Below, piece by piece: positions 45,108-56,291 of a stretch of 64,000 nucleotides of DNA. The DNA is from Bullera alba (taxonomy: Eukaryota; Basidiomycota; Tremellomycetes; Tremellales; Bulleraceae). The notes beneath the pieces are model-generated. The model was not told where the DNA came from. It saw only the letters and a program-made list of their open reading frames with translations, and ran no database searches. Numbering within the stretch: the stretch's first letter is position 1; each line of letters starts with the position of its first letter. The stretch is from positions 248,001 to 312,000 of the forward strand of contig BCIX01000003.1 of the NCBI GenBank assembly GCA_001600095.1, read 5' to 3'. The position numbers and the translations under genes are program-made.

Positions 45108-47043
45108 ATGTTCTCGCTTCCTAGACCAGAGCCTAGGAGGTGGTTCACCAAATCCTACTGGTATTTAGAGACACCGCCAGCCTCTTATGCCACGCACGAC
45201 GGATGGTCCAATGCCGACGTTGACGTCACGCCAGTCGAGCAGCGTAATTGGAAAGCGTGAGTGATCCTGATCTTCATACAGCTTCTCTCCAAGCTGACCT
45301 TACCCCTCAGTGTCAACTACCTCTTCCTCTGGCTTTCCGATGGTGCAAACGTCGGTACCATGCAGCAGGCCGGCTCCATCGTTGCCATGGGTCTCAGTTG
45401 GCGAGAGGCTTCCGTTGCAATGTGAGTAGCGGCAGTTGCCCGTCCTCGCACCACATCACTGACCCCGGCATACAGTGCAATCGGCAATACCATCATCGCC
45501 CTTGCCGTTGCCTTCAACGGAATCTTCGGGTCCCGACATCACATTCCCTTTTCCATCGCATCCAGAGCATCTCTCGGTTTCTACTTTTCCTACTTTGCCG
45601 TCGTGTCCCGACTAGTCCTTGGTCTGATCTACTTTGGGTGAGTCTGATCCCACTTCTTCCTGGACTCTCAGCTAATGGATGGCTGCAGTATCAACTCGTA
45701 CATCGGAGCTTCCTGCATGCTCATCATGCTGCAAGCCATTTGGCCATCATTGAAGACGTACCCCAATGCCCTGCCCGCCAGTGCTGGAATCACAAGTAAT
45801 AGGATGATTGCGTACTTTGTCTTCTGGACCCGTGAGTCTAGATTGTTCGTATTCGTTCCTTTCACTGACGTTGTGTGCCACAGTCCAGCTGCCTCTCGTC
45901 CTCATCCATCCTCGAAAGATGAGATGGCTGTTCTTCATCAAGTCGATCGCCGCAGTCATCGCCGCCTTTGCCCTTCTCGGCTGGTCCGTCAAGACTGCCG
46001 GAGGTGGTGGACCTATCTTCGCACAGAAGTCCAGGCTTTCTGGCAGCGCCAAGAGTTGGGCTTGGGTTTCTGGTATCAACATTGCCATTTCTGGTAAAAC
46101 GACTCTGGCACTCAACATTGTGAGTTTGTCACCAGACGCACGGCGAGATAAATACTGATTCACTCTGTAGTCCGATCTGACGCGATATGCCCAAAAGCCA
46201 TCTGCTACCTACTGGCAATTGCTCTACATCCCCCTCGTCTACTGGACGTTTTCCTTCATCGGTATTGTCGTCGCCTCGGCTGCCGACGAGATCTACAAGC
46301 CCAAGACCACCTTCTGGGACCCCACGGCCATCATCGCGCTCTGGGAGAACCGAGCTGCGGCATTCTTCTGCGCCTTTGCCTTTGGTCTCGCCACACTCGG
46401 TACCAACATCTCCACCAACTCGATCGCCACGTCCAACGATTTCGCCTTTATCGCTCCCAAATGGATCAACATCCAACGTGGTGCTTTCCTCACTGCGATC
46501 ATTGGCGGGTGGGCCACTGCGCCATGGAAGATCCAAGCCAGTGCCAAGAGCTTGACCACGTTCCTCAGTGGCTATATCATCGTCCTCGCCCCGGTGGTCT
46601 CGATCATGATCTTCGACTACTGGGTGATCAGGGGTAGAAAGCTCCACGTGCCCATGCTATACCAAAACGAGGGTATCTATCGATACAAAGGTGGTGTCAA
46701 CTGGCGAGCAATCGTCACTCTTCTCGTGGTGATTCCTATCAACTTGCCCGGTCTGATCAACGCGATCAACAACAAAGTCGATATTGGAAACCACGCGTAT
46801 TTCTACCGATCCTCCTGGATGACTTCGTTCTTCATCTCGGCTGCCGTCTACGTCGCCCTCAGCAAGATCTTCACTCCCAAGGACACTTTTGTGCCAAAGA
46901 CGGTCGAGTCTCTAGACGAGGATACCGGCTACCCAGGCGTCACCGAGCCTGTCAATGGCGCCGATACGCCATGGGAGAAGGAGATGAGCCCGACGACCAG
47001 CGGCGAGCACGAGAAGTATGGCGGATCGTTCCGAAAGGTCTAG
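45108..47043 (+). CDS. NCS1 permease (uracil/uridine/allantoin type)
   Basis: Exons assemble MFSLPRPEPRRWFTKSYWYL, then DVTPVEQRNWKAVNYLFLW, GTMQQAGSIVAMGLSWREAS, IALAVAFNGIFGSRHHIPFS, FPYFAVVSR-like and NSYIGASCMLIMLQAIWPS. These are followed by SDLTRYAQKPSATYWQLLYI, LGTNISTNSIATSNDFAFIA and IDYWVIRGRK-like segments. The protein ends YGGSFRKV with TAG at 47041. NxxRYA-type 'SDLTRYA', the GxRHHIPF motif and 'NSxAxxNDF' are the diagnostic NCS1 (Fur4/Dal4/Fui1) sites. About 12 TM segments take up uracil, uridine, allantoin or a related base with protons. The substrate cannot be assigned. The C-terminal cytoplasmic tail is acidic and Ser/Thr-rich, suited to ubiquitin-linked turnover. Exon 1 ends at 45256. 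Six introns or so, all short. Confidence 0.92.
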
Positions 47044-47487
47044 ACCAGGTACCAATTCGACTCGTCATCGCTGCCATACGACCTCTCCCCTGTCGCCACG
47101 AAGAAGAGATACAACGCCTACGTTCAGCATCAACGATCAACGAAATCAAATCCCACGTGTCGGCCCGGTATAGAGCATGTATATTACTTCCCGATCACCA
47201 TCACCCTGGTCATCATTCGAATTGTGAATATTGTTTTTCGAATCGCCTCTGTCGCTTCACTGGCAGTCGCTGGCCTCGCCCGACATCCGACTTCTGGACA
47301 CTTCTTCACAGGCTACGCCTCGCTTCTCTCTAGGTTTCTCTGGGTTTTCATCATTCGCATCTCCATTTGTACATGACTTGCCCTACGACCGCCCCTCGTT
47401 ATGACTATGCAACCGTACCTCCCGGCGACCATCCATCTACACTATTCTCACTGTCACACCTCACAAACTGCGACGATCCACGGAATC
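47044..47487. other. convergent 3' region, with a segment shared with copy B
   Basis: Between the permease stop and array gene A. Positions about 47334-47361 contain CTCTGGGTTTTCATC..TTCGCATC, nearly identical to 49001-49028, downstream of array gene B. See findings. Confidence 0.6.
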
Positions 47488-48099
47488 CTACTCGGCCGCC
47501 TCGACTGATCCGACTGACTTGACCGTCTCGGCTGTCTTGGCTGTCTTGGCTGACTCGACTGACTCGACGTACTTCTTCCACGGGGCCGAAGACTCGGTGA
47601 GCGCGGTGAACTTGGCCTCGCTGTTGGACAGGATGTCTGGAACGGAGATCTCAACTGTCCCGAGAATGTGGCGCAAGTTTCTCCTGATTTGATCGATGGT
47701 TCCAAGGTGGGTGTTGACTGTCTTTTGATTGATGCCTTCCGACTCATCGTCATCGGAGTCATTTCCGGGATCGATCTTCGATCGCCAGGATGTACCTTGC
47801 GCAAGGTCTGCAAGGCCGTATCCGAGGGCGAGACACTCATCAAGGAAGCCCCCTCGAGTCCCTCGGTTCTTCGGATTCGGCAGGTGGTACCCTGGGATAG
47901 TTGTATCCGGCGGCAAGAAATGGGACCAAAGCGCGTCGAAGCTGTTCTTCCCATGGTTGAGTTTAGTAGAGCACTCCGAGATTTGCGCCTGGGATAGAGG
48001 AAGATTGACGAGCATCTCCTTCAGTTTGCCCACTTCTTCTTCCTCACGTCGAAGGGCCGATTTCATGGCGGACCATTCAGTTTCATCTGGTTGCCACAT
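47488..48099 (-). CDS. array paralogue A: unknown intronless family protein
   Basis: I do not recognise this family. The protein (203 residues, MWQPDETEWSAMKSALR..) has three blocks shared with its four neighbours. Block 1 is a helix with MLVNLPLSQAQISECSTKL followed by a hydrophobic helix and a Pro (..LWSHFLPPD). Block 2 is GTRGGFLDECLALGYGLADL. Block 3 is HLGTIDQIRRNLRHILG and VEISVPDILSNSEAKFTAL with SSAPWKKYVES. A repetitive, Lys/Ser/Val-rich tail (SAKTAKTAETVKSVGS) follows. It has no signal peptide, membrane segment or introns. Secondary structure looks all-helical. Stop TAG 47488-47490. The start is the only ATG upstream of block 1. The TATA-like ATATAAGC at 48272 is about 175 nt upstream. 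Confidence 0.75.
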   Translation of the reverse strand: MWQPDETEWSAMKSALRREEEEVGKLKEMLVNLPLSQAQISECSTKLNHGKNSFDALWSHFLPPDTTIPGYHLPNPKNRGTRGGFLDECLALGYGLADLAQGTSWRSKIDPGNDSDDDESEGINQKTVNTHLGTIDQIRRNLRHILGTVEISVPDILSNSEAKFTALTESSAPWKKYVESVESAKTAKTAETVKSVGSVEAAE

Positions 48100-49202
48100 G
48101 CTTGGTAAGAAGCGTGAAGTAGTGGATGGGGCTTGCAGAGAAAGTGACAGAGCACTAGGGAGTAGACACGATGAAAGCTAGGTGAAGGCTGAAGCTGACT
48201 TGGCCTGAGTGCAAGTGGCGACGAGGAGGCCGATCGAAACGGTCGAACGGTGATATCGGGTGTGTGCCAAGCTTATATGTATGCCCTTGCGCGGTGATCC
48301 AGAAGGCCAGAAGACAAGTGAGTTCTAGAGCTTTTATCGCCTGCACTAGCCTCAAATGATGAAATCCTTTGAGCCCCTTTCTCCGGCACCTCGCTTGCAG
48401 TTGCAGCCATGGAACCCGAAAAGGATGTGCTCGCAGACTCCTCCTTCCAGCTTTGGACCCGGGTCAATCGCATTAGCCCCTACGTTTCAAGGCAACACGC
48501 AAGTCCTTGACACGGAAGTCTGATGACGCTGACTCCTCCATTCGGCTTGCCACCCATGGTTCTTCGCAATATCCCCCTACATGTCGAGGTGAGGCCCGAA
48601 GGTCTGTTGATTAATGATTCTCATCCCCTCGAGCCTCCATAGACCAGTCAGCAATACACTGCATCAGCATTGCACCCTGCTACTTTGCGTCTATCGCGTC
48701 ACTCTCCTACTCAAGTTACATGTCAGAGAAGCCGAAGTAGGAGTGGCTAGCACATACGTATCCCCACATCATGGGATGTGGAAGGCGGCTCTCCGGCCCC
48801 AGTCCCCAACGGCAAGGAGGGAAATCAGCCTGCTCGAAAGGTCTGCGACTTGCGTCATGGAGTCAGTGACTCGTCACTCCACTCGCCAAACACCCAATAC
48901 TCAATGACCCCTCTCACTTTCAGTGTCTCACCCGTCATCCCACTCTTGGGCAGTTAGGGCTGGGCACTTGCTCGCAGACCGAGGATCGGTGCGCTGTGGG
49001 TTCTCTGGGTTTTCATCGTTCGCATCCGCATTGTAACCTACCGTAACTACTACCTAGGACCCCGTCGTGACGACTTTGCACATGTACGAACTACGATGCA
49101 ACAACTCACACCGCTTCAACCTCCATGTCCCACTGAGTTCTCGATGGCACTGCACGGAGCCACGACGCCATCCCTGCCTTCCGTGCAGCCCAGGCAAGCT
49201 GC
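48100..49202. other. intergenic region within the array (A to B)
   Basis: Promoter of copy A (TATA near 48272; AGAAGGCCAGAAGACAAG at 48301) and 3' flank of copy B, with the CTCTGGGTTTTCATC block at 49001. Small ORFs (48614-48907 plus) look spurious. Confidence 0.5.
48301..48318. promoter_or_regulatory. GGCCAGAA promoter motif, copy A
   Basis: AGAAGGCCAGAAGACAAG; a related site occurs upstream of copies B (50049) and E (54306). It may be a shared regulatory site or duplicated flank. Confidence 0.4.
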
Positions 49203-49763
49203 TCAGTTCACCGTCACCGCACCGGCGTTGGATTTGGAAGTCTCGAGATAGTCCTTCCACGGAGCCAGAGAGTCGGAAAGATTGCTGAACTTGGACTCGC
49301 TCTCGGTCAAGACATCGGGAATTGAGATCTCGACTCTCCTGAGGATCGGGAGCATCTCCTCTCTGGATCGCTTGATGGTCTCGAGATGCTCGTGGATCTT
49401 GCTGTTCTTGCTCTCCTCGCTCAAGCTGCTGTCTTTGCTCTTGGATCGCGTGGCGAACGCAGATCTTCGTGCAACCTCAATAGGCTCGTAGCCGAGATCG
49501 AGACACGCCTCAAAGAAGCCCCCTCGGTCCGTTGGGATGTCGGATGGTCCGGAGGTGGTGGCACCGGGAAACATGAGCTCGGCAAGAGCTTCGACGCTCT
49601 GCTTAGCTGTCCTGAGCTTGTCAGTGCACTCGGACACCTGGCCGTCCGAAAGAGGGAGATTGGCCAGGAGCTGGTTGACAGTGACATTGTCCTGCTCCTC
49701 TTGCCCGAGAGCGGACTCAAGGGCGTCCGCCTCATCGCCACTTAGGACTGGCAGTGCCGACAT
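49203..49763 (-). CDS. array paralogue B: unknown intronless family protein
   Basis: 186 residues: MSALPVLSGDEADALESALG, then block 1 LLANLPLSDGQVSECTDKL, block 2 PTDRGGFFEACLDLGYEPIE, and block 3 HLETIKRSREEMLPILRRVE with ISIPDVLTESESKFSNL and SLAPWKDYLETSKSN. It is the closest relative of copy A (block 1 NLPLS..Q.SEC..KL, block 2 RGGF..ECL.LGY, block 3 VEIS.PD.L..SE.KF..L..S.APWK.Y.E.). It is cytosolic or nuclear by composition, with no targeting signal or transmembrane helix. ATG at 49763 is chosen over the in-frame upstream codons because it begins the shared N-terminal layout. Stop TGA 49203. No intron. The function is unknown. Confidence 0.75.
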   Translation of the reverse strand: MSALPVLSGDEADALESALGQEEQDNVTVNQLLANLPLSDGQVSECTDKLRTAKQSVEALAELMFPGATTSGPSDIPTDRGGFFEACLDLGYEPIEVARRSAFATRSKSKDSSLSEESKNSKIHEHLETIKRSREEMLPILRRVEISIPDVLTESESKFSNLSDSLAPWKDYLETSKSNAGAVTVN

Positions 49764-50414
49764 GTTGCGATGTAAAGGTGAGGTGTTAGAGTTTAGACTG
49801 TTTGGAAGTGTGATAGAGTGCGGGCGCAAGTACCAAGTGGCGAGTGGTAGAGTCAAGAGTATGGAGGAATGAGGAGAACAACCGATTCAGTCGATGGAAA
49901 TGACTTGAAGAGCACAGTTGACCTGGGCGTGCTCCAGGCTTATGTGTTTGGCAAGGACGAAGGCTATGGTAGTCGCTCCATTCACCAAAGACATTTCGCT
50001 CCTGTTGATCGCACTAGTCTGACTCTCTTACACGTAAGAGACTTTTATGAGGCCAGAAGACGAAGCAGTGGTCTCATACAATAGGCAGAAGGCGTTTGAG
50101 TGAGAGAATCTCAGAATTCAGAAGAGACGGCGTGAGCGTGGGGGCTGGGTCTTGGAAGAGTGGGACGTGTGCATGTGCATCGTGACTGCTGTGACATCAT
50201 GACCCATGGGCGCTCTCCGGAAGAACAAGGGGAGAAACCACCAGCTTGACTTGTTTCGTGTTCAAAGCAGGCCTTCTGCATCGATACGTAGGTGTCAATC
50301 CACAAGATTAGAGAGTCAGCCCATCATGATCCTCCCCCTTCCACTACGCCAACGAGCCCCCCTGGCCTCCCGCCATCCACTGCGAGCTCTTCACAGCAGC
50401 TCCCGCGAAGAGGC
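49764..50414. other. intergenic region within the array (B to C)
   Basis: Contains the copy B promoter, with the segment CCAGGCTTATGTGTTTGGC near 49937 that resembles the copy A TATA region CCAAGCTTATATGTATGCC, and GAGGCCAGAAGACGAAG at 50049. No other gene is seen. Confidence 0.5.
50049..50065. promoter_or_regulatory. GGCCAGAA promoter motif, copy B
   Basis: GAGGCCAGAAGACGAAG, about 290 nt upstream of copy B. Confidence 0.4.
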
Positions 50415-51143
50415 TCATCCCCACGAGGAGTGCTGTTGCTCCGGTCGAAAGTCTTCCTCTGAAGATGGAACCAAAGGTCCCCTCGAAGACTCAGTCGCTT
50501 GAGGCTGACTTGCATCATCCTCGTCCTCCAGCTCTTGGACATACTTCCTCAGCGGGGCAAGTCCGGTGTCCAACTCGGACAGCTTGTTTGCCGTGCCGAC
50601 TGACACTTTGGGAACCCGAATATCCAGCGACTCGTATTCATTGGAGAGGTTATCGATGGCATCTTTGGTCGACGTCAGGTGTTGTGCGACTTGCTGCGCT
50701 GGAATCTTGGCATCTCCTTGAGTCCGTTCTGGCGATCCGACTCCCGTGTCCGAGGCGCTGCAGAGTTGAGTGTACTGTTCGCGCAGGTCGTTGACCTCGT
50801 CAAAGAGTTCCCCTCGGTCCAAGTCAGTAGGCGCCCTACCGCAGGGCTTCGCCGTGGCGTCGGGATCAAGAAGGTCGCGAACCCTGTCCAAACTCTCCCA
50901 GGCGGATTGCAGAGTCTTGGAGCAGTTCGATTGTTGTCGGCTGCTGAGAGGAAAGCCCGCGAGTAAGCCGAGCCATAGGGCACCATGGCTCTCGTCATCG
51001 ATGGCGGTAGAGTTGACATGGCTGTCGTCCTCAATTGATGGCTAGCTGGCAAGTCTTGCAAGTTGGAAGTGTGCTGGCGCTCTAATTGGGTGTGGGAACA
51101 AGCTGTTCGGGTGGAGAACGAGAGGGGGCGATGAGTCAAGCAT
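50415..51143 (-). CDS. array paralogue C: unknown family protein, 5' end doubtful
   Basis: The reading frame carries block 1 GLLAGFPLSSRQQSNCSKTL with SAWESLDRVRDLLDP, block 2 DLDRGELFDEVNDLREQY, and block 3 HLTSTKDAIDNLSNEYESLD with IRVPKVSVGTANKLSELD and LAPLRKYVQELED. It ends EEDFRPEQQHSSWG (stop at 50415). It resembles the second half of copy D most. The 5' end is a problem. In the same frame there is an ATG at 51143 (MLDSSPPLVLHPNSLFP) but a TAG at 51042-51044 lies between it and the conserved part. No in-frame ATG lies after the TAG. Either a weak intron (GTTCTC..CAGCTAG, 78 nt, in phase) removes the stop, or the copy is a broken gene. Confidence 0.6.
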
Positions 51144-51456
51144 CTTGTGAGCCTTCCTGTACCCCTGCCTGATGACTATCAGCTGGCAGGGTACTCGAGC
51201 ACTCGCGGGGACGATCAAACGTGTGTCGTATCGGCTGTCCTTTGTGGCACACCGCGATGAGTGCCACCAGAGCCTCGCTCGCCACGTTCGTCATTTTGTC
51301 CCCCCCAGTCGGTGTTGCACGATGTAGAGAGGCGGAAGGCCAGCTTACATAGGGGGTTACTGCTCGCCAGCGAAGTCTCTTCAAGACTCATTCTGGATGC
51401 CGGCCTGAGGAGTGAGCGCATGTCATCGGAGGTCATGTGCATCGATTCGCATCATA
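51144..51456. other. intergenic region within the array (C to D)
   Basis: Short spacer between copy C and copy D (both minus). ORFs on both strands are not gene-like. Confidence 0.4.
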
Positions 51457-52710
51457 CTAAGTAATCATAGACTGACAATCAGGCTCAGTCGGCGTACTGG
51501 GAGAGCTACGCAAACCCAAAGGCTGGTTCTCCAGACCGGAAGGGGTCAATATCCCGCCGTGTCCGATCCCATCCTCGAGGGTACGCACGTACCGTCTCAT
51601 CCTGCGAATTTCCTCCTCCAAATGCTCAAGCTTACTCTCTGTCTCATCGCCCCAGTCGGGAACGTGGATGTCTAGCGATCTGCACTCCTCTCTGACTTTC
51701 TCAACGGATAATGATACAGACCCGAGTAGCCATCCGGCTTGAGATAAAGAATAACCACTTTCTGCCCAGGCCCGCTTGGGTTCCCCATCTTCGTAGCGCG
51801 CCTCTTGAGCGTCGATGTGTGACGATAGTTCATGGACGGCGCGACTCAGCTCGTCGCATTCTTTGAAGTAGCCCTCCCGGTCCAGATCGATCGACACTTC
51901 TCGATCGGGCAAGCTGGGAGTCGAACTGTCTGCGACTTCGGGGTCGAACGTATAATTCGTCCGTGCCAAATCGAGCCTATGCCATGCAGTCTGTAGATTG
52001 GATGCACAGTTGGCTTGTTGGAGAGTGCTCAGTGGTATATTGGTCAGCACAGCAGCCCATAGGGCATCTTCCTTGTCGATCTCGATGGGAATGGGTGATG
52101 ATGCTTGGTGATCTTGCTTGTTGATGTGAAGAGGCAGAATTAGACTCTCGGCTGAGCTTGGTCGGCTCCCCTGAAGTGTCTCGACGTATTTCTTCACCGG
52201 TTGGAGCAGAAGCTCCAGGTAATCGAGGCTGTGATCCGGGGTCTGACCCAAGTCGAGGACTCGGATCACCGATGATCTGCACTCTACCATTGCCTCCTCG
52301 ATGGATTGGAAGGCCGAGTCCAGTAATGCTCTCACTTGAACCGCGTCTGTTGATGTGACTGGATACTGGGCTATGGCGCCGGATTCTACATCCTGCACGA
52401 TTGGTCCTTGCTTAGCCGGCAGCGATGAGGAGAGCTGACTGGCGGCGCGATGCAGTTGGCTGCAACTCAGGAAGTAACCCCGTCTGCCGAGTTCAGTGGA
52501 GATTGTAGATCGCTTGGGCATTGCGGAGAAGGTGACGGGATCGTAAAGCTTCCGGGCGTTGTCGAAATTCTCCCACCCTCTCTGCAGGCTCTTCGCACAG
52601 CTGGTTTCTTGCTCACGGGTCATAGGAAAGCATGTCAGGATTCTCGACCACTGGAGGCCCTGGTCGTAAACCGAAGTGACCTCGACATTCGCGGGGTGAT
52701 TGCTGATCAT
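51457..52710 (-). CDS. array paralogue D: two-domain copy of the unknown family
   Basis: 417 residues, intronless, with the family domain twice. First unit: WSRILTCFPMTREQETSCAK, GRRGYFLSCSQLHRAASQL, MVECRSSVIRVLDLGQTPD and LLLQPVKKYVETLQ. Second unit: WAAVLTNIPLSTLQQANCAS, LDREGYFKECDELSRAVHEL, VREECRSLDIHVPDWGDETE and EEEIRRMRRYVRTLED. Both units keep the P-[LM]-[ST]-x2-Q-x3-C helix, the R-x-G-[YF]-F-x-x-C block and the V-x-x-L..V..YVxTL tail. The N-terminus (MISNHPANVEVTSVYDQG) and C-terminus (SSPSTPTEPDCQSMIT) are unrelated tails. No membrane helix or signal peptide. The spacing of about 205 residues between units suggests fusion of two neighbouring copies. Confidence 0.75.
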   Translation of the reverse strand: MISNHPANVEVTSVYDQGLQWSRILTCFPMTREQETSCAKSLQRGWENFDNARKLYDPVTFSAMPKRSTISTELGRRGYFLSCSQLHRAASQLSSSLPAKQGPIVQDVESGAIAQYPVTSTDAVQVRALLDSAFQSIEEAMVECRSSVIRVLDLGQTPDHSLDYLELLLQPVKKYVETLQGSRPSSAESLILPLHINKQDHQASSPIPIEIDKEDALWAAVLTNIPLSTLQQANCASNLQTAWHRLDLARTNYTFDPEVADSSTPSLPDREVSIDLDREGYFKECDELSRAVHELSSHIDAQEARYEDGEPKRAWAESGYSLSQAGWLLGSVSLSVEKVREECRSLDIHVPDWGDETESKLEHLEEEIRRMRRYVRTLEDGIGHGGILTPSGLENQPLGLRSSPSTPTEPDCQSMIT

Positions 52711-53275
52711 TGTCGTATTGTGAGTTGAAGGGAATTTGGAATTTGGAATGTCAATGAACAGTCGTTCGTGGGTCGGTGGGGCAGGATGCCGATGAGTCGA
52801 ATGACTCTCGCCGCCTGACACACTGCTGAATCTTCATAGCCTGACTATCCATCAAACTTGACTACAAAGAGTGAGAAGACCCCATGAAACATCAACGCAA
52901 TGATCCTTTCAACGAATCACGTTGACGATACACTGCCGAGGATACGAGCTCAATTTCCTCCTCATGACCCAGATCGTCACAAATATCCCCGCGTTTCATC
53001 ACGCCATCAAGGCCTTGAGCGACCCGGTGGTTAGATGTTGTGAAGCAAGGACAAGCTCACCTCAGCCGGCCATGCGATAGAAGGGTAACGCAGTCTAGAT
53101 CTCGCTGAATTCTTACGCACTCCCCACCCCATGAACCTTCCACAAGTCACCTGATTGCCAGTACGAGACACCTAATCGCAAGTGTAACCAAAGTGCATGC
53201 TAGATATCCATATCCAGCTGGCATTGCCATCCGGTGCGTAGTCTATGGCTTTCTCCGGGCTGTTCCCTCAGTGCC
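52711..53275. other. intergenic region within the array (D to E)
   Basis: Copy D promoter region and copy E 3' flank. I see no gene or repeat that stands out. Confidence 0.4.
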
Positions 53276-53908
53276 TCACTCCTCCAGCGAGGATGGCCTG
53301 ATGCCCAGTACGATGTCCGACACTAGCTCCGCGACAGCCCCTACTTCTCTGAGGACCGATCCCGCAATCTGGGTGAAAGTCATCCTGCTCCCAACTGCTC
53401 CAGCTTGCCCAGATTGACCAGTACCATTATTATCACCATCCTCGTCCTCTCCTTCGCTATCGTTGACATCGTCGCCGTGTTCGCTACCGTCGACACTCTC
53501 ATGATCCCCGTCAAACTGCTCGAACACTTCGTCTCCCACCTTCTCGACATACCCCCGGCCTGGCGTCCCCTCCTCGTCAGTCGGATCAGCTGCTCCTGCG
53601 GTCAAGATCGTACCCGCCTCGCCGAGGCTTTGAAGCATTTCATCATACTCAGCGTCCACCGACGTTACATCGGCGGTGCGGTATGTTTTTGAAACACCCT
53701 CAAGGAGGCCGTGAAGGAATGAACGCCGGTCAGAGAGCTGTCGCCAGCTAAGAGCTTGTATCCCAATAGGAACCCGGGTTCGATTTACGGTATTTGGGCT
53801 CGAGGCCGCGAGGCCGAGTATCCCCTGCTCGACCGAGGATAGGAGGGTGCTCACTCGGCTGGCCTCGGAGGATGGGAGGTTGACGTTGCGCACGTGGAGC
53901 GAGGGCAT
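53276..53908 (-). CDS. array paralogue E: diverged copy with acidic insert
   Basis: 210 residues, intronless: MPSLHVRNVNLPSSEASRVS, then TLLSSVEQGILGLA, SDRRSFLHGLLEGVSKTYR and EYDEMLQSLGEAGTILTAG. These align in order with blocks 1, 2 and 3 of the neighbours (NLP.S...S..L, DR..F......G...). An inserted acidic run follows (ESVDGSEHGDDVNDSEGEDE). It ends TQIAGSVLREVGAVAELVSD with IVLGIRPSSLEE, a helical end not present in the other copies. The Cys of block 1 is missing. The start at 53908 is used because the in-frame ATG at 54040 would add 44 unrelated residues. Family membership is weaker than for A-D. Confidence 0.6.
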   Translation of the reverse strand: MPSLHVRNVNLPSSEASRVSTLLSSVEQGILGLAASSPNTVNRTRVPIGIQALSWRQLSDRRSFLHGLLEGVSKTYRTADVTSVDAEYDEMLQSLGEAGTILTAGAADPTDEEGTPGRGYVEKVGDEVFEQFDGDHESVDGSEHGDDVNDSEGEDEDGDNNGTGQSGQAGAVGSRMTFTQIAGSVLREVGAVAELVSDIVLGIRPSSLEE

Positions 53909-54494: not shown

Positions 54495-56291
54495 TTATAG
54501 CTGCTTGTTCGCCCAGTCGGAGACCTTTGTCAACTGGGGGTATCCAGGCGAGGGAGCCTCACTAGCAACCAAGTATCAGTCATCTGCACTACCATCCGTC
54601 TCGTTGCTTCAACTCACCTGGCAGCGGTGCTGACGAACACCTTGACGACACCGGCGTATCGCTCATCAAACTTCTTGTACAGGGCGGGGAAGTCGTTGAT
54701 GTCGACTCTGTGGGTAACGAGGTCGGTCATGTCGATCTTGCCGGTCTTGAGGTAGTCGTTGAGGATTTCCTCCCAGTAGAGGTGAACTGGCGCCTGACCG
54801 TTTCCGATGAATCGGATTCCCTTCTCTGCAATCGGGTCAGTATGCTCGCATCAAGCCACATTGTGTGGACTTACCCATCAGAGCACCAATGTTGAAGTGG
54901 TTGGTGTATCCGGCGTAAGCAGCGATGAGGCCGACTCGACCGAACTTTCTGGCGAGGAAGATCATCTCGTTGGGCGTCTCTGGCACATCCGTCTCGAGCA
55001 TGAGAGCCTTCTCGACCTTGTGCAGCATTGTCTTTGGCTCGTGGAAGGTAGTGCAGTCGATACAAGCTGCGCTGGAGTTAGAACCACGAGATTCGCTCAT
55101 AGACGGTGCAGGACTCACCGTCCAGACCCTTGGGGGTCTCTCCGAGGATGAACTTGCAGACATCCTCGGTCTTGAAATCGACAGTGACGACCTTGGGGCC
55201 AGCTTTCGCGGCAAGGGCGAGTCGAGCGGGCACAGTGTCGATGACGTAGACCTTGGAGGCACCCTTGGCCAGAGCGAATCGCAGGGCGACTTGCTAAACA
55301 TGGGGTTAGTATGGACTATGTGGGTGTCTTGAATTACATACACCAATAGGACCGGCTCTGTGCTCGAAAGTCAGTTGTAATCATTAACGTGTACCTGGAC
55401 TGCATGACTCACCCCCAGATACCAACAACATCACCCTCCTCGACGCCGGTGTCGACGACCGAGTGGTAGGCAGTTGGCAAAATGTCGGAAAGGTCTACAA
55501 GAACGTGTCAGAGCATGCCCTGGGATGGCGAAGTTTCAGCTTACAGAGAACCTGCTCATCTGCAGGGAACATCAGTCGGCATTCCAAAGAGGTCGCAAGA
55601 CTTTGACTTACCGGCGACTCCCTGAGGGATCTTAAGACAGTTGACTTCTCCGAATGGAACCCTGACGTATTCGGCCTGTCCACCTGGGTAGCCTCCAGTC
55701 ATGTGGCTGATCGAGGAGTCAGCTGGCCATCGCTTCTATCATTTGCTGCGACTCACCCATAACCGAGGAAACCAGCGTCTCTCTGGCCATACATGCTGGC
55801 CATCAAACTACTGTTGTTGGTCCTGTCGCACATTGAACTCCATTTCTTCTGGCAAAACTCGCAAGTTCCACAAGCGATCTGGAAACTGACGACGACCTTG
55901 TCTCCAACCTTGAGGTGGGTGACCTCGGGACCGACTCTGTCCACGACACCCATAAACTCGTGTCCGAGGATATCACCTTTTTGCATGGCCAGCATCTCTG
56001 CGTGGTACAGGTGGAGATCGGAACCGCAGATGGTTGTGCCGGTGGTCTTGATGATGACGTCTTTGGGCTCGGAAATGTCTGGGATGGGAGCGTCCACCAT
56101 TCGGACGTCCTTGTTGCCGAACCAGGCGAGAGCACGCATAGTCGCTCCTCCCTCTCGGTGCTTGTAGGTTGGCTCCGTGGCGGCTGTAAGGGGGTCAAAA
56201 CGGGATCGAAAGCGGTGAGTTCTGTTGATACAGGGCACTCACTCTTCACGGGACCCATGTAGTCTTGGACAGCGTTGGCGGCGGCCTGCAT
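54495..56291 (-). CDS. zinc-dependent alcohol/formaldehyde dehydrogenase (MDR)
   Basis: The protein starts MQAAANAVQDYMGPVK. It continues MRALAWFGNKDVRMVDAP, TTICGSDLHLYHAEMLAM, GDILGHEFMGVVDRVG (catalytic zinc ligands C..GHE), CGTCEFCQKKWSSMCD (four-Cys structural zinc site), GQRDAGFLGY, VPFGEVNCLKIPQGV, DTGVEEGDVVGIWGAGPIG (GxGPIG NAD site), GASKVYVIDTVPARLALA and AACIDCTTFHEP. It ends KVSDWANKQL with TAA at 54495-54497. The MDR family members with this layout are NAD(P)-dependent, glutathione-independent formaldehyde or alcohol dehydrogenases. Eight or so short exons. TATAAA (revcomp at 56381-56386) lies about 90 nt upstream. Start codon and all junctions are consistent. Confidence 0.9.

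What the first reader, a model, noticed from the sequence alone, without database searches (positions are those of the whole stretch)
47488..53908. Tandem array of five intronless paralogues of an unrecognised protein family
Five consecutive same-strand ORFs (A 47488-48099, B 49203-49763, C 50415-51143, D 51457-52710, E 53276-53908) share, in order, a helix with P-[LM]-[ST]-x2-Q-x3-C, a R-x-G-[FY]-[FL]-x-x-C block, and a V-[EP]-x-[IV]..[VP]-D..(L)-x5-(L)-x-P-[WL]-[KR]-x-Y-[VL]-[EQ] tail. I recognise no domain. Arrays like this suggest lineage-specific expansion, for example allorecognition, stress or host-interaction functions, but no function is evident.
Basis: partly seen in the sequence, partly recalled or inferred. 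Interest (0 to 1): 0.8.

Follow-up and report, generated by a model that had tools for sequence, protein, structure and literature searches.

The report
Orphan helical-bundle gene array in yeast
Four neighbouring fungal genes (not five) carry five copies of a small, probably all-helical protein domain that matches no family we could search; the array looks like a fast-changing, lineage-restricted gene family of unknown function, a kind of thing that is common in fungi.

Summary
The core observation holds with corrections. On the minus strand, A (47488-48099), B (49203-49763), C (50415-51041) and D (51457-52710) are paralogous; D holds two copies of the domain, so there are four genes and five domains. 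E (53276-53908) is unrelated. C as given contains an in-frame stop, and its open part has no methionine; frame differences at both edges, relative to a close relative (P0008), suggest a decaying copy. A, B and D are uninterrupted without good intron candidates, while the neighbouring dehydrogenase has nine introns. No copy elsewhere in the 19.4-Mb genome was found at this sensitivity. Pfam, NCBIfam and fold searches gave no match; two weak PDB sequence matches look compositional. Three searches of 5.8 billion proteins returned six relatives. AlphaFold predicts a five-helix bundle (pLDDT 81). One relative, P0006, is mosaic: 39% identical to A over most of the domain but 85% over the last helix and end, consistent with exchange between tandem copies. 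Best reading: a lineage-restricted, soluble helical interaction module diversifying by birth-and-death; function is inferred only. A new orphan family of an ordinary kind. An arms-race or self-recognition role is possible but not shown.

The parts
47488..48099 (-). Gene A: 203 aa, one helical domain
   Evidence: ATG-start uninterrupted frame; family match; JGI protein P0005 identical at 191 of 192 residues
49203..49763 (-). Gene B: 186 aa, one helical domain
   Evidence: ATG-start uninterrupted frame; 39% to A; protein P0004 identical at 185 of 186 residues; AF2 five-helix model pLDDT 80.7
50415..51041 (-). Copy C: open frame of 208 codons without Met, one helical domain; probably a decaying copy, or has an unseen first exon
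   Evidence: in-frame TAG 51042-51044; similarity; only weak splice donors for an upstream exon; relatives P0008, P0009
50347..50490 (-). 48-codon stretch in another frame overlapping the 3' end of C; its product matches the hydrophobic C-terminal tail of the relative P0008 (92%)
51457..52710 (-). Gene D: 417 aa, two copies of the domain (D1 at 52111-52710, D2 at 51457-52110)
47333..47367 (-). 35-nt element downstream of A, 89% identical to the one downstream of B; its 20-base core is found exactly at these two places only, and with three mismatches at three more places in the genome
48998..49032 (-). 35-nt element downstream of B, partner of the above (spacing 1665)
53276..53908 (-). ORF E: 210 aa, NOT a member; acidic middle, no Pfam match

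Best explanation
A small lineage-restricted gene family in one tandem array: three apparently intact single-exon genes (A, B, D) and one probably decaying copy (C), carrying five copies of a soluble ~170-residue domain predicted to be a five-helix bundle. Shown: paralogy, no significant copy elsewhere in this genome at the sensitivity used, no hydrophobic membrane-like segment in A, B and D, no recognised family. Inferred: the domain is a protein-protein interaction module (no catalytic residue pattern is evident; the conserved positions are mostly hydrophobic ones plus Pro, Gln, Cys and Arg), and the array diversifies by tandem duplication, exchange between neighbours and loss. The most likely role is a dispensable, fast-evolving regulatory or recognition adaptor in the cytoplasm; this last step is inference with low confidence (about 0.25).
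For: Similarity of all five domains; significant genome matches only in the array; tree A/P0007/(B,P0006) versus (C,P0008),(D1,D2); A and B share a 3'-flank element; P0006 mosaic, 60/154 identical to A before the tail and 35/41 in the tail, Fisher p 1.1e-7 with a boundary that I chose after seeing the alignment, and a second partial tail copy; five-helix model with pLDDT 80.7, pTM 0.76; maximal 19-residue hydropathy 0.72 or less in A, B, C, D; no intron candidate in A, B, C and only two long ones (over 90 bases, loose branch site) in D, by a screen that recovers 9 of 9 introns of the neighbouring dehydrogenase with the loose branch site; codon usage.
Against: No transcript or protein evidence. 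Codon score of D (0.002) lies below all nine training ORFs (0.078 to 0.36), which themselves are not all verified genes. The low number of relatives may reflect the word-based search: one search missed P0004 although B was in the query alignment. The genome searches reach only fairly close copies: the query A found three of the array's places and missed D. P0006 may be a different paralogue with a shared tail rather than an exchange product; its DNA could not be read. Two PDB chains matched the profile by sequence below E 0.001 (9r1o_A 2.4e-5, 8jmv_A 2.7e-4); I take them for compositional matches of long helices but did not test that.
Confidence: 0.65

Rival explanations
1. The family is a fast-diverged branch of a known, widespread helical family (for example a vesicle-tether, SNARE-Habc or nucleoporin coiled-coil part), not a true orphan; function would follow that family.
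Against: Pfam scores listed are far below curated cut-offs; a Pfam family is shared by at most 2 of 9 members, and in the one listed member B the partner may be its 99% twin P0004; Foldseek best E 0.48. Such scores are usual for helical bundles.
Confidence: 0.25
2. C is a working gene whose first exon lies upstream and whose real product may carry the hydrophobic tail seen in P0008 (a membrane-anchored variant made by a frame change).
For: Domain core of C open and 85% identical to P0008 over 165 residues; tail frame 92% identical over 48 codons; tail hydropathy 1.54 over 19 residues, a borderline membrane value; C scores as coding.
Against: No Met; best upstream splice donor GTACAG (one-intron models of 38-200 bases only, my own donor weights) is poor against the GTGAGT/GTAAGT type of the neighbour; P0008 itself starts in a shifted frame; window and JGI P0009 share the tail-less frame.
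Confidence: 0.2
3. The frames are not genes: chance open frames or the remains of a repeat.
For: No expression data; C is damaged; D's codon score is low.
Against: Protein-level similarity persists while DNA alignments were found only between A and B (two coding pieces of 73% and 77% and the 3' element; the other pairs gave nothing but the overlap of the regions compared); sense frames best of six for A-D; near-identical proteins in other data sets, Logan and JGI (that these are independent samples is inferred).
Confidence: 0.07
4. The first reader's five-gene array including E.
For: E is the next same-strand ORF of similar length.
Against: No similarity by shuffles, phmmer or hhalign.
Confidence: 0.03

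Closest known systems
Lineage-specific (orphan) gene clusters of fungi, e.g. Neurospora lineage-specific genes clustered with HET-domain genes (PMC10684091, only title and abstract start seen, in the listing)
   Same: Clustered genes without detectable relatives outside a lineage
   Different: Here a single paralogous array, about 295 kb from the start of a 2.28-Mb contig, not shown to be near a telomere; no HET or NLR gene came up, but I did not search the window for one
Talin/BAR/apolipoprotein-type helical bundles (fold only)
   Same: Amphipathic helices packed side by side, no evident catalytic site
   Different: No sequence match in Pfam; fold scores at the level the tool states is common for unrelated helical bundles

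Membership tests
The new family itself (A, B, C, D1, D2) | Significant whole-domain sequence similarity to the other copies | tested here: met
   z 5.4 or more in 10 of 10 pairs (two pairs, A-D1 and B-D1, are weak by blastp); E fails in 5 of 5 pairs
Any Pfam-A or NCBIfam family | Score above the curated cut-off | tested here: not met
   five window proteins, best 16.0 bits against cut-offs of 24.1 or more; best E 0.013 over 9 members, bits shown for the first member only; (NCBIfam): one member, E 0.03. PHROGs and PADLOC not searched
Talin/BAR/apolipoprotein-type bundle folds | Fold match well above background over most of the domain | tested here: inconclusive
Allorecognition (het/vic) gene arrays | Allelic or copy-number polymorphism between strains linked to incompatibility | not testable with these tools
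   No strain panel or phenotype; P0006/P0007 divergence is only suggestive
Allorecognition (het/vic) gene arrays | HET, NACHT/NB-ARC or amyloid-signalling domain in the protein itself | tested here: not met
   No such Pfam match at E up to 1 in A, B, D, E and 158 residues of C, nor at E up to 0.5 in whole C

The most novel reading that the evidence does not exclude
The array is a hypervariable recognition or conflict locus: bundle parts are swapped and diversified between tandem copies (39% identity over most of the bundle against 85% over the last helix and end in the mosaic relative), the single-exon structure aids exchange, and copies toggle between soluble and tail-anchored forms, serving self/non-self recognition or an arms race with a parasite.
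Probability: 0.12. Interest if true: 0.7.

Novelty: new member of a known kind. Interest (0 to 1): 0.35.

Why it matters
If the mosaic pattern is confirmed by strain sequencing, it would give an unstudied fungal locus with fast domain exchange, a candidate for recognition or conflict in a yeast. If not, it is one more orphan tandem family, useful mainly for naming a new domain and for correcting gene models (four genes, D a double-domain protein, C doubtful, E separate).

Full report
Observation. All five ORFs are on the minus strand. A, B and D are complete ATG-start frames. The interval given for C contains an in-frame stop, and the open frame after it (50415-51041) has no methionine. D is a double-domain protein: its halves match each other (33%, 9e-23) and C better than they match A or B. 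The ten pairs among A, B, C, D1 and D2 stand 5.4 to 51.9 standard deviations above shuffles; A-D1 and B-D1 are the weakest, with blastp E 0.005 and 0.17, and one of 500 shuffles reached A-D1. E stands at -0.6 to 1.4 in its five pairs, with hhalign probability 0.3%. So there are four genes and five domains, and E is a separate ORF without a Pfam match.

Introns. The neighbouring zinc alcohol dehydrogenase (named from its sequence by recall, not by a call; 441 residues when spliced) has nine introns of 48 to 59 bases. A donor plus branch-site screen recovers 8 of 9 of them with a strict and 9 of 9 with a loose branch site. The same screen gives none in A, B or C; in D none with the strict and two with the loose site, both over 90 bases; in E one with the loose site, 69 bases, whose removal would keep the frame. 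The 'intronless' remark is thus supported for A, B and D, without transcript evidence.

Coding. By codon usage trained on nine ORFs of the window (3043 codons, not all verified genes, scored without leaving themselves out), the sense frame is the best of six for A 0.139, B 0.186, C 0.117 and D 0.002; for E an antisense frame scores as high (0.084 against 0.074).

Distribution. Three genome searches with A, B and D, and a fourth with the relative P0008, found the array and no significant match elsewhere in the 19.4-Mb assembly. Their reach is limited: query A did not find D. Three searches of 5.8 billion proteins gave 1 of 271, 3 of 5431 and 2 of 5868 candidates: six proteins, of which P0004, P0005 and P0009 are about 99% identical to B, A and C, and P0006, P0007 and P0008 are diverged. 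The search needs shared exact words and missed P0004 although B was in the query, so this is a lower bound.

Evolution. In the tree of 8 rows, 2 of 5 inner branches reach the program's mark for good support: the split between the A/B side and the C/D side (100/100) and C with P0008 (98/97, short branches 0.08 and 0.10). D1 pairs with D2 (85/86) and B with the front part of P0006 (87/96); A and P0007 lie on the B/P0006 side. P0006 and P0008 are each listed on one contig, longest 3326 bases, so they probably lie together; this is inference from equal lengths. P0006 is 60/154 identical to A before the tail and 35/41 in the tail (p 1.1e-7), and carries a second, partial copy of the tail segment. 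The tail begins inside the last helix; I set the boundary after seeing the alignment, so the p-value is optimistic. Tail identity equals the C-P0008 identity (85%), so the rest of the bundle is the odd part. The same split for P0007 and B shows no such contrast (p 0.25 and 0.54). Exchange between tandem copies is the simplest reading; a shared tail on a lost paralogue is not excluded. A and B also share a 35-base element 3' of each gene (89%); its 20-base core is exact only at these two places, with three further places at three mismatches.

Copy C. Compared with P0008 the frame differs at both edges: P0008 begins in a frame that in the window is not the domain frame, and its hydrophobic tail corresponds to a different frame at window 50347-50490 (92% over 48 codons). 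Together with the missing Met and weak upstream splice donors this favours a decaying copy. Against it, the core of 165 residues is open and 85% identical in both, and codon usage looks coding.

Mechanism. Shown: no hydrophobic membrane-like segment in A, B, C, D, paralogous, significant matches only in the array; predicted: helical. Inferred: an interaction module without catalysis, evolving by birth-and-death. I put about 0.25 on a cytoplasmic recognition or regulatory adaptor and 0.12 on a true hypervariable recognition or conflict locus. Nothing here tests function.

Noticed in passing
47333-47367 and 48998-49032 (-): 35-base element 89% identical downstream of A and of B, against 73% and 77% for the two coding pieces that align between these genes (one 40-base coding piece reaches 85%); possibly a 3'-end or regulatory element.
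   Followed up: partly
50347-50490 (-): Second frame at the end of C encodes a hydrophobic 19-residue stretch (hydropathy 1.54) conserved at 92% with the tail of P0008.
   Followed up: partly
54495-56291 (-): Complete zinc alcohol dehydrogenase-like gene, 441 aa, nine introns of 48-59 bases; family named by recall.
   Followed up: partly
53276-53908 (-): E: orphan ORF with an acidic middle and a hydrophobic C-terminal stretch (hydropathy 1.49); an antisense frame scores as well as the sense frame by codon usage and a 69-base intron candidate lies inside, so its coding state and model are doubtful.
   Followed up: partly
46219-47043 (+): C-terminal part of a purine/cytosine permease (PF02133, profile positions 240-426 of 440), convergent with gene A.
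   Followed up: no
G000 contigs: The assembly has 7 contigs for 19.4 Mb, one of them (C1) of 8.0 Mb.
   Followed up: no
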